Below, piece after piece: positions 1 through 61,936 of a stretch of DNA of 61,936 bases. Location of the stretch: positions 1-61,936 of the IMG/VR virus record IMGVR_UViG_3300031974_003128. One strand, written 5' to 3'. The notes under the pieces were generated by a model. That model was not told the DNA's origin and did not search any database. It saw only the letters and a list, made by a program, of their open reading frames with translations. Each line of letters opens with the position of its first letter. Within the stretch, counting starts at the first letter, position 1. Origin of the DNA: a virus. The translations under genes were made by a program, and so were the position numbers.

Positions 1-60
1 TCTTCTAAACTTACATCTTCTAAAAATTACCTTAAAAGATATAGAGGTCAAGGCAGGTAA
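1..60 (+). CDS. 3' end of small basic protein (continues from 61771)
   Basis: Twenty in-frame codons ending in TAA at 58-60. They are the same as the C-terminus of the 44-residue Lys/Arg/Ser-rich protein at 61771-61905. It is partial here only because the contig was opened inside the gene. Confidence 0.8.
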   Translation, partial: SSKLTSSKNYLKRYRGQGR

Positions 61-68
61 ATAATTTA

Positions 69-76
69 TATCTTTG
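69..76 (+). promoter_or_regulatory. Bacteroidota -7 promoter element TATCTTTG
   Basis: TATCTTTG fits the Bacteroidota sigma-ABfr consensus TAnnTTTG. It lies 20 bp before the ATG at 97, followed by an A/T-only leader. It probably drives the packaging/head operon. The same element is repeated at 61914-61921. Confidence 0.7.
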
Positions 77-96
77 TATTAATTAAATTTAATCTA

Positions 97-60302: not shown

Positions 60303-60315
60303 ATAAAAAAATAGT

Positions 60316-60323
60316 ATTTTTGT
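60316..60323 (+). promoter_or_regulatory. -7 promoter element TATTTTTG
   Basis: It fits TAnnTTTG and lies 10 bp before the ATG at 60334. It may start the lysis operon. Confidence 0.6.
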
Positions 60324-60333
60324 AAAAATAATT

Positions 60334-60699
60334 ATGGCACACTTTGCAGAACTTGATGAAAACAATGTAGTATTACAAGTAATTGTTGTACACAACAATG
60401 AGCTCAAAGGAGCTAACGGTGTTGAGTATGAAAACAAAGGCATAGAGTTTTGTAACTCTTTGTTTGGTCATACGAATTGGGTGCAAACCTCTTATAATCA
60501 CAATATGAGAAAACAATTCGCTGGAATAGGTTTTACTTATGATGATGTGAATGATGTTTTTGTAGCGCCACAACCTTATCCTAGTTGGTCTCTTGATGAA
60601 AACCACGATTGGCAAGCTCCTGTAGCAATGCCAGATGATGGTCAGTTGTATGGTTGGAACGAAGAAACGCAAAGCTGGGATTTAATAAATATAGAATAA
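60334..60699 (+). CDS. MAHFAELDENN-type protein (121 aa)
   Basis: MAHFAELDENNVVLQVIVVH, then FAGIGFTYDDVNDVFVAPQP and YPSWSLDENHDWQAP, is a small protein common in cyanophages and other marine phages near tail genes. It is related to the C-terminal half of the 275-residue protein at 55334. Its role is not known. It may be driven by TATTTTTG at 60316. Confidence 0.7.
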   Translation: MAHFAELDENNVVLQVIVVHNNELKGANGVEYENKGIEFCNSLFGHTNWVQTSYNHNMRKQFAGIGFTYDDVNDVFVAPQPYPSWSLDENHDWQAPVAMPDDGQLYGWNEETQSWDLINIE

Positions 60700-60703
60700 T
60701 AAT

Positions 60704-60850
60704 ATGAACTTAGATTTCGAACCTACGATACTTGGTGTAGCAGTTTACATAATAACAATCGCAGAAATAAATGCGGTCTTGCAAGGTCTTTTAATAATTG
60801 CTACCTTAGTGTATACGATTATTAAAACGTACCAGTTATTAAAAAAATAA
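60704..60850 (+). CDS. holin-like small membrane protein (48 aa)
   Basis: Two hydrophobic helices (TILGVAVYIITIAEI and LQGLLIIATLVYTII) joined by a short polar turn, with a Lys-ended C-terminus (KTYQLLKK). This is the size and shape of a small holin and it lies directly before the endolysin. The last codons form A-AAA-AAA-TAA, a slippery run that stops in this frame and opens into the endolysin frame at -1. Confidence 0.65.
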   Translation: MNLDFEPTILGVAVYIITIAEINAVLQGLLIIATLVYTIIKTYQLLKK

Positions 60851-61299
60851 GTTCACATATCTCCTACAAAGAAGCAGTAAAATCTAATACTGCACTTCGA
60901 CTTAATATCGACAATACTCCTGATGGTTATGCTCTTGCTAATATGGAAGCAATAGCTAAAGAAATATTTGAACCACTTAGAGAGTGGGTAGGAGGCCCAA
61001 TAAAAATAAATTCATTTTACAGATGCCCAGATTTAAATACTGCTATCGGGGGGAGTAAATCATCACAACATTGCCAAGGTAGAGCGATTGACCTGGATGA
61101 TACTTTTGGTCATAAAACAAATGCTGAGATGTATAATTACATAAAACAGAACTTAAACTTTGACCAGCTTATATGGGAGTTTGGTGATAATGATAATCCT
61201 GACTGGGTGCATGTATCATTTGTTAGTAATGAAGAGAATAGAGGAAGGTGCTTAAAAGCATATAAAGAAAATGGAAAATCTAAATACATGGTAATATGA
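60847..61299 (+). CDS. M15-type peptidase endolysin with non-canonical (AUA?) start
   Basis: The metal site is SSQHCQGRAIDL (His43 and Asp50, counted from the ATG at 60943) and DWVHVSF (His90), as in Peptidase_M15_3 endolysins that cut peptidoglycan cross-links. The ATG at 60943 cuts off a conserved-looking N-terminus (SSHISYKEAVKSNTALRLNI, then DNTPDGYALAN) that is open in frame. The only sensible begin is ATA at 60847, exactly where other genes here have an ATGA overlap with the upstream stop (ATAA). A -1 frameshift on A7 would instead fuse it to the holin. The upstream in-frame stop is at 60823. Confidence 0.7.
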   Translation: MSSHISYKEAVKSNTALRLNIDNTPDGYALANMEAIAKEIFEPLREWVGGPIKINSFYRCPDLNTAIGGSKSSQHCQGRAIDLDDTFGHKTNAEMYNYIKQNLNFDQLIWEFGDNDNPDWVHVSFVSNEENRGRCLKAYKENGKSKYMVI

Positions 61300-61781
61300 G
61301 TAATAAAAAAAAGTTCGGACAAACAACTGTAGGTAAATTATTAAAAGGTGCAGTTGGTTTAATCAACCCAACACTTGGTTCATTAATTCAAGGAGAGATG
61401 AGTGTTGAGGAAGTAATTGCTTCTATTAAAGAATCAGACGCTCCAGTTGAAGATAAAATAAAAGCACAAGAAATGATACTTGAAGCTTATGAAGCTGAAG
61501 TAGCAGACAGAGCATCAGCAAGACAAAGAGAAATTGCAGCTATCCAATCTGGTTCTAATGATAGTTTATTTAAAACAGTTGGATGGGGTATTACACTTTC
61601 TTTTGTTGCAGTTGTAGCAGGAGCTATTGGTGTATGGCAAATACCAGAGGAATCTCAAAGATTATTTGATATGGGGTTCGGTGCAGTAGTTGCAGCATTT
61701 ACACAGGTTATTGGTTATTACTTTGGAAGTTCAGCTGGTTCAAAACAAAAAACAGATTTAATAAGTAAAAGTGGCTCGTAA
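61296..61781 (+). CDS. putative holin of the 3TM type
   Basis: A protein of 161 residues. The N-terminal half is soluble (TTVGKLLKGAVGLINPTLGS, then EEVIASIKESD). The C-terminal half has membrane helices (VGWGITLSFVAVVAGAIGVW and FGAVVAAFTQVIGYYFGSSA). The DRASARQREI segment before the first helix is typical of the 'holin of 3TMs' family. It overlaps the endolysin gene by 4 bp, completing a holin-endolysin-holin lysis block. Confidence 0.75.
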   Translation: MSNKKKFGQTTVGKLLKGAVGLINPTLGSLIQGEMSVEEVIASIKESDAPVEDKIKAQEMILEAYEAEVADRASARQREIAAIQSGSNDSLFKTVGWGITLSFVAVVAGAIGVWQIPEESQRLFDMGFGAVVAAFTQVIGYYFGSSAGSKQKTDLISKSGS

Positions 61782-61905
61782 CGTTTCCTTTGTTCATTTA
61801 GTAAAACCTAAAAAAAGAAGACCTGGTGTTCACGCCAAAACTAAATCTTCTAAACTTACATCTTCTAAAAATTACCTTAAAAGATATAGAGGTCAAGGCA
61901 GGTAA
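61771..61905 (+). CDS. small basic protein across the contig join (44 aa)
   Basis: A GTG start at 61771, overlapping the holin gene by 11 bp. The product is MARNVSFVHLVKPKKRRPGV, then HAKTKSSKLTSSKNYLKRYR and GQGR. It is strongly basic like the small proteins at 50-52 kb and reminiscent of ribosomal or DNA-binding tails. The 3' half is duplicated at positions 1-60. Confidence 0.6.
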   Translation: MARNVSFVHLVKPKKRRPGVHAKTKSSKLTSSKNYLKRYRGQGR

Positions 61906-61936
61906 ATAATTTATATCTTTGTATTAATTAAATTTA
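61846..61936. repeat. 91-bp terminal direct repeat, right copy
   Basis: Identical to 1-91; see the left copy. It contains the end of the small basic gene and the TATCTTTG element at 61914-61921. Confidence 0.95.

What the first reader, a model, noticed from the sequence alone, without database searches (positions are those of the whole stretch)
60836..60946. Holin-endolysin junction without a normal start codon: AUA start or -1 frameshift on A7
The M15 endolysin's conserved-looking N-terminus (SSHISYKEAVKSNTAL) is open in frame but has no ATG, GTG or TTG. The holin ends A-AAA-AAA-TAA. At the exact place where this genome normally has ATGA, there is ATAA: one G-to-A change keeps the holin stop but makes the endolysin start AUA. 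The seven-A run is also a classic -1 slippery site that would produce a holin-endolysin fusion anchored in the membrane. Either route would tie endolysin output to holin translation at a low rate.
Basis: partly seen in the sequence, partly recalled or inferred. Interest (0 to 1): 0.78.

Follow-up and report, generated by a model that had tools for sequence, protein, structure and literature searches.

The report
Phage endolysin starting at AUU
In this marine phage and its nearest relatives the cell-wall-cutting lysis enzyme has lost the usual ATG start signal and very probably begins at a rare, weak start codon (AUU or AUC) just inside or behind the preceding gene, which would keep the amount of lysis enzyme low and tied to its neighbour.

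Summary
In detail: the M15 endolysin frame (60826-61299) is open but has no ATG, GTG or TTG before 60943. Its conserved N-terminus lies upstream of that Met, and Met-60943 is an internal residue conserved in all 150 relatives covering it. In 151 distinct junctions, 86 of 138 normally starting relatives have ATG exactly at codon 60838. The ATA at 60847 is the family's internal Ile codon (ATA in 122 of those 138). At 60838 the window has ATT. All 13 junctions without ATG/GTG/TTG carry ATT (9) or ATC (4) there, and the ten full-length ones form one clade (98/80). They come from about 15 other metagenomes, so this is not a read error. The A7 frameshift cannot be the general route: in the ATC members the overlapping small gene is gone and a stop precedes the ATC, while in-frame A_AAA_AAA occurs 24 times in this phage's genes and no structure follows the site. 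The closest ATG-bearing junction is 8 nt longer, which fits a deletion that removed the ATG. Best explanation: AUU/AUC initiation, coupled to the upstream gene, giving low endolysin output. Initiation itself, its rate and any benefit are not shown.

The parts
60838..61299 (+). M15 endolysin gene as proposed here (M/I-KKISSHISYKEA...MVI, 153 aa), starting at AUU
   Evidence: Pfam PF08291 Peptidase_M15_3 E 1.2e-14; PHROG 894 endolysin E 2.6e-30; alignment to 31 relatives; confident fold, pLDDT 95.5, best PDB match zinc DD-peptidase 1lbu
60838..60840 (+). ATT, proposed start codon, at the place of ATG in relatives
   Evidence: 86/138 canonical relatives have ATG and 5 GTG at this codon; all 13 junctions without a canonical start have ATT or ATC here
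60704..60850 (+). 48-aa small hydrophobic protein, putative holin, overlapping the endolysin by 13 nt
   Evidence: ORF; 76-87% identical homologues directly before the endolysin in the L013 and L009 records; no family match
60836..60850 (+). dual-coding overlap block TTA TTA AAA AAA TAA, invariant in 9 relatives although most earlier codons of the small gene vary
   Evidence: chance of the last five codons all being among the invariant ones about 2e-4, ignoring relatedness and lysine codon bias
60841..60847 (+). A7 run, possible -1 slip site A_AAA_AAA
   Evidence: sequence; 24 such in-frame sites in genes of the window; no downstream structure
60847..60849 (+).
   Evidence: Ile in 136/138 canonical relatives, ATA in 122
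60943..60945 (+). internal ATG, a conserved Met and not a start
   Evidence: Met in 12/12 non-canonical and 138/138 canonical relatives; lies inside helix 30-51 of the model
60334..60699 (+). upstream gene, PHROG 7759 of unknown function
   Evidence: E 1.6e-45
61296..61781 (+). downstream gene overlapping the endolysin stop by ATGA; hydrophobic C-terminal half, possible alternative holin (inferred by eye)
   Evidence: PHROG 1544, unknown function

Best explanation
The endolysin is initiated at AUU 60838 (AUC in part of its sister lineages), the position of AUG in the rest of the family. Here that codon lies inside the last codons of the small membrane-protein gene, whose ribosomes stop about 10 nt further on at UAA 60848-60850. 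Those ribosomes, or 30S subunits they leave behind, most likely re-initiate at the AUU with fMet-tRNA at low efficiency, so endolysin output would be low and follow translation of the upstream gene. In the sequence the change looks like an 8-nt deletion at the overlap that removed the ATG. Shown: the missing canonical start, the conserved N-terminus upstream of Met-60943, and a clade-wide AUU/AUC at the homologous codon. Inferred: initiation at that codon, coupling, low rate, any selective benefit, and the deletion.
For: 259 loci gave 151 distinct junctions. 138 have ATG/GTG 1-7 codons before the I-S-x-H motif; 13 have none and all carry ATT (9) or ATC (4) at codon -3. The ten full-length ones form one clade (98/80) with ATT and ATC mixed and none returned to ATG. 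They come from about 15 other metagenomes, which makes a read error very unlikely. The N-terminus is under purifying selection within this clade (pN/pS 0.27 before Met-60943). Codon 60847 is an internal Ile codon in the family. The invariant block in the small gene begins at the codon that carries the A of ATT, not at 60847. In the ATC members the 12 nt before codon 60847 are 100% identical while flanks further out are 66-87%. AUU/AUA starts are real elsewhere: S. aureus cvfC1 AUU and ccpN AUA gave about 10% of AUG (PMC13009471); infC ATT/ATC and sigR GTC are IF3-controlled (PMC5472188).
Against: No translation data. The clade may have kept the non-AUG start by descent, or because ATG at 60838 would put TGA into the small gene (TTA TGA), so selection for a weak start is not shown. 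AUG-to-AUU switches are very rare (1 of 61,358 in PMC5622118). The -3 base before the AUU is G, not the A favoured in Flavobacterium (PMC6847099), whereas the AUA at 60847 has A there.
Confidence: 0.63

Rival explanations
1. Translation starts at AUA 60847, giving M-SSHISYKEA.
For: AUA is a possible weak start and is preceded by A at -3, the favoured context in Flavobacterium (PMC6847099); starts in relatives range from -7 to -1 codons, so a short N-terminus could work.
Against: The codon is Ile in 136/138 normally starting relatives and ATA in 122, so it is an inherited internal codon; residue 4 is an invariant Ile in strand 3-5 of the model; one ATC member has ATT here.
Confidence: 0.13
2. 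A -1 frameshift on A_AAA_AAA makes a membrane protein-endolysin fusion.
For: Correct phase and stop in the zero frame; A7 invariant in all 9 ATT members.
Against: Impossible in the ATC members of the same clade: the overlapping small gene is absent and an in-frame TAA lies two codons before ATC. No stimulatory structure. 24 in-frame A_AAA_AAA sites in genes of the window. The A-run is also required by K-K in both frames.
Confidence: 0.1
3. Translation starts at the internal ATG 60943, giving a 118-aa protein.
For: First canonical start in frame.
Against: Met conserved 138/138 in relatives that start upstream; upstream codons under purifying selection; a start here would remove a strand, two helices and part of a third.
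Confidence: 0.03
4. AUU/AUC starts at codon 60838 but without coupling or any regulatory role: an accident of a small deletion, kept by drift and by the overlap.
For: The overlap makes restoring ATG costly in ATT members, since it would truncate the small gene; deletion pattern relative to L013.
Against: ATC members are free of the overlap yet have not regained ATG.
Confidence: 0.11

Closest known systems
infC (IF3) ATT/ATC/ATA start codon and pcnB AUU start
   Same: conserved AUN start, low initiation and (infC) sensitivity to IF3
   Different: cellular genes; infC is autoregulated by its own product; here it is a phage lysis enzyme, within or behind an upstream gene
Streptomyces sigR GTC start; S. 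aureus cvfC1 AUU and ccpN AUA starts
   Same: non-canonical starts shown to lower protein output (PMC5472188, PMC13009471)
   Different: those have strong Shine-Dalgarno sequences; none is evident here, and this phage appears to infect Bacteroidota, which rarely use them
Overlapping holin-endolysin genes of marine phages (L013, L068 and about 40 other relatives)
   Same: small hydrophobic protein overlapping an M15 endolysin
   Different: those overlap by 17 nt in the other relative frame with ATG or GTG; here 13 nt with AUU
Peptidase_M15_3 / PHROG 894 endolysins (e.g. Flavobacterium phage MaF61, pelagiphages)
   Same: same enzyme family, about 35-46% identity
   Different: ordinary members; the start codon was not examined in those records

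Membership tests
Peptidase M15_3 endolysin | profile match to PF08291 above the curated cut-off | tested here: met
   54.8 bits against 23.2; PHROG 894 endolysin
Peptidase M15_3 endolysin | zinc-peptidase fold | tested here: met
   model pLDDT 95.5, Foldseek match to zinc DD-peptidase 1lbu E 3.9e-06
Genes with a non-canonical AUN start | no ATG/GTG/TTG at the start while the N-terminus is conserved | tested here: met
Genes with a non-canonical AUN start | non-canonical start conserved among relatives | tested here: met
   13 junctions, one clade 98/80
Genes with a non-canonical AUN start | initiation shown experimentally, and IF3 sensitivity | not testable with these tools
   needs bench work
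Programmed -1 frameshift gene | slippery heptamer in phase | tested here: met
   A_AAA_AAA at 60841-60847
Programmed -1 frameshift gene | stimulatory RNA structure downstream | tested here: not met
   z -0.78
Programmed -1 frameshift gene | frame arrangement conserved across the clade | tested here: not met
   absent in ATC members
Holin (48-aa gene) | profile match to a known holin family | tested here: not met
   no match in Pfam, PHROGs, NCBIfam

The most novel reading that the evidence does not exclude
A lysis gene whose start codon is kept at AUU/AUC by selection so that endolysin synthesis depends on initiation-factor (IF3) stringency and on translation of the preceding gene, making the start codon part of the lysis clock.
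Probability: 0.2. Interest if true: 0.75.

Novelty: new variant of a known kind. Interest (0 to 1): 0.5.

Why it matters
Non-AUG AUN starts are known for very few bacterial genes, and the searches made here found no report of one in a phage endolysin. If confirmed, it gives a naturally weak, clade-conserved start in a gene whose dose could set lysis, in a bacterial group that mostly initiates without Shine-Dalgarno sequences. It also warns that gene callers limited to ATG/GTG/TTG would cut this enzyme to 118 aa.

Tried and rejected
Sequencing error in the A-run or the start: rejected, the same junction occurs in about 15 other metagenomes. ATG-to-ATA change at 60847: rejected, the ATA is inherited. 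Phage-encoded special initiator tRNA: no tRNA found in the window. Downstream stem-loop for frameshifting: not found. The small gene moved elsewhere in ATC members: no match in their records, but these are fragments. Relatives in cellular genomes: only two, both with canonical starts. Two viral pattern scans added only two further ATT junctions (L087, L088). Papers: no non-AUG endolysin found; Hecht et al. on all 64 start codons is not held.

Full report
What is there. The window is a virus record with a 91-bp direct terminal repeat, so it is probably a complete genome of about 61.8 kb. Near its end lie, in order, a PHROG 7759 gene (60334-60699), a 48-aa hydrophobic protein (60704-60850), an M15 endolysin and a gene that overlaps the endolysin's stop by ATGA. 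The endolysin frame is open from 60826 to 61299 and has no ATG, GTG or TTG before 60943. TAnnTTTG motifs before 60334 and at the window end suggest a Bacteroidota host (seen by eye, inference).

Where the protein begins. Met-60943 is conserved in 138 of 138 relatives that start further upstream and in all 12 non-canonical ones that reach it (the counts are over the 151 junctions). The codons before it show purifying selection within the clade, pN/pS 0.27, against 0.12-0.15 further on. In the AlphaFold model it lies inside helix 30-51, after one strand and two helices. So translation begins upstream of it.

Which codon. Scans of the viral collection and one of genomes gave 259 loci and 151 distinct junctions. 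Counting codons from the I of I-S-x-H, 138 junctions have a canonical codon between -7 and -1, 86 of them ATG at -3. The 13 without any all have ATT or ATC at -3. In the window this is ATT 60838-60840.

One clade. In a maximum-likelihood tree of 142 proteins the ten full-length non-canonical rows form one clade with support 98/80, AUU and AUC interleaved, all 132 canonical rows outside. The simplest account is one loss of the ATG, later changes between ATT and ATC, and no return. Recombination at gene borders could also mix the two.

How the ATG may have been lost. About 45 relatives have a small hydrophobic gene that overlaps the endolysin by 17 nt, its tail GKNK-stop lying over ATG GAA AAA ATA AGT. 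The small-gene homologue in L013, with ATG, is 76% identical. Its junction CTACTGGAAAATGGAAAAAATAAG is 8 nt longer than the window's TTATTAAAAAAATAAG. An 8-nt deletion would remove the ATG, change the relative frame and create the A-run. In the AUC members the small gene is absent and TAATTAAGTCATCAAAAATATAAG stands there; its last 19 nt align without gaps to the AUU junction. This history is inference.

Dual coding. In nine AUU members the last five codons of the small gene, TTA TTA AAA AAA TAA, are invariant although most earlier codons vary (about 2e-4 by a simple count, which ignores relatedness and codon bias). The block begins with the codon holding the A of ATT. In AUC members the 12 nt before codon 0 are identical while flanks further out are 66-87% identical. 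Both fit a constraint that starts at codon -3, but neither is proof.

Frameshift. The heptamer is in phase, but AUC members cannot use it; no structure follows, and 24 in-frame A_AAA_AAA sites occur in the window's genes. It may still give a minor product in AUU members.

Mechanism. Known AUU and AUA starts give about a tenth of AUG in S. aureus, and non-canonical starts are held down by IF3. Re-initiation without a Shine-Dalgarno sequence is weak and reduced further by excess IF3 in E. coli. With the stop about 10 nt beyond the AUU, coupled re-initiation is the most likely route. Low output, coupling and IF3 dependence are predictions here, not results.

Known and new. The enzyme is an ordinary M15_3 endolysin. 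Non-canonical AUN starts are a known kind. The new element is a phage lysis gene with a clade-conserved AUU/AUC start; the paper searches found no earlier case, but that library lacks most subscription journals.

Noticed in passing
window 1-91 and 61846-61936: 91-bp direct terminal repeat, so the record is probably a complete or circularly permuted genome of about 61.8 kb.
   Followed up: partly
L016, L019, L020 junctions: Relatives with ATA at codon -3 and no ATG at -1, whose only canonical start is an ATG seven codons up, overlapping the small gene by 29 nt; close relatives L021 and L110 start at ATG -1. Possibly a second loss of the near start.
   Followed up: partly
about 45 relatives, e.g. 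L068, L071, L139: A constant 17-nt small-gene/endolysin overlap in which the tail GKNK-stop is encoded by the start M-E-K/R-I-S of the endolysin; also seen behind unrelated upstream genes in L167 and L168.
   Followed up: partly
L007, L008, L011, L012, L044: Phages of this clade without the small hydrophobic gene at the junction; the gene after the endolysin may serve as holin instead.
   Followed up: partly
window 60310-60333 and 61911-61925: TAnnTTTG motifs like those of Bacteroidota promoters; host inference only.
   Followed up: no
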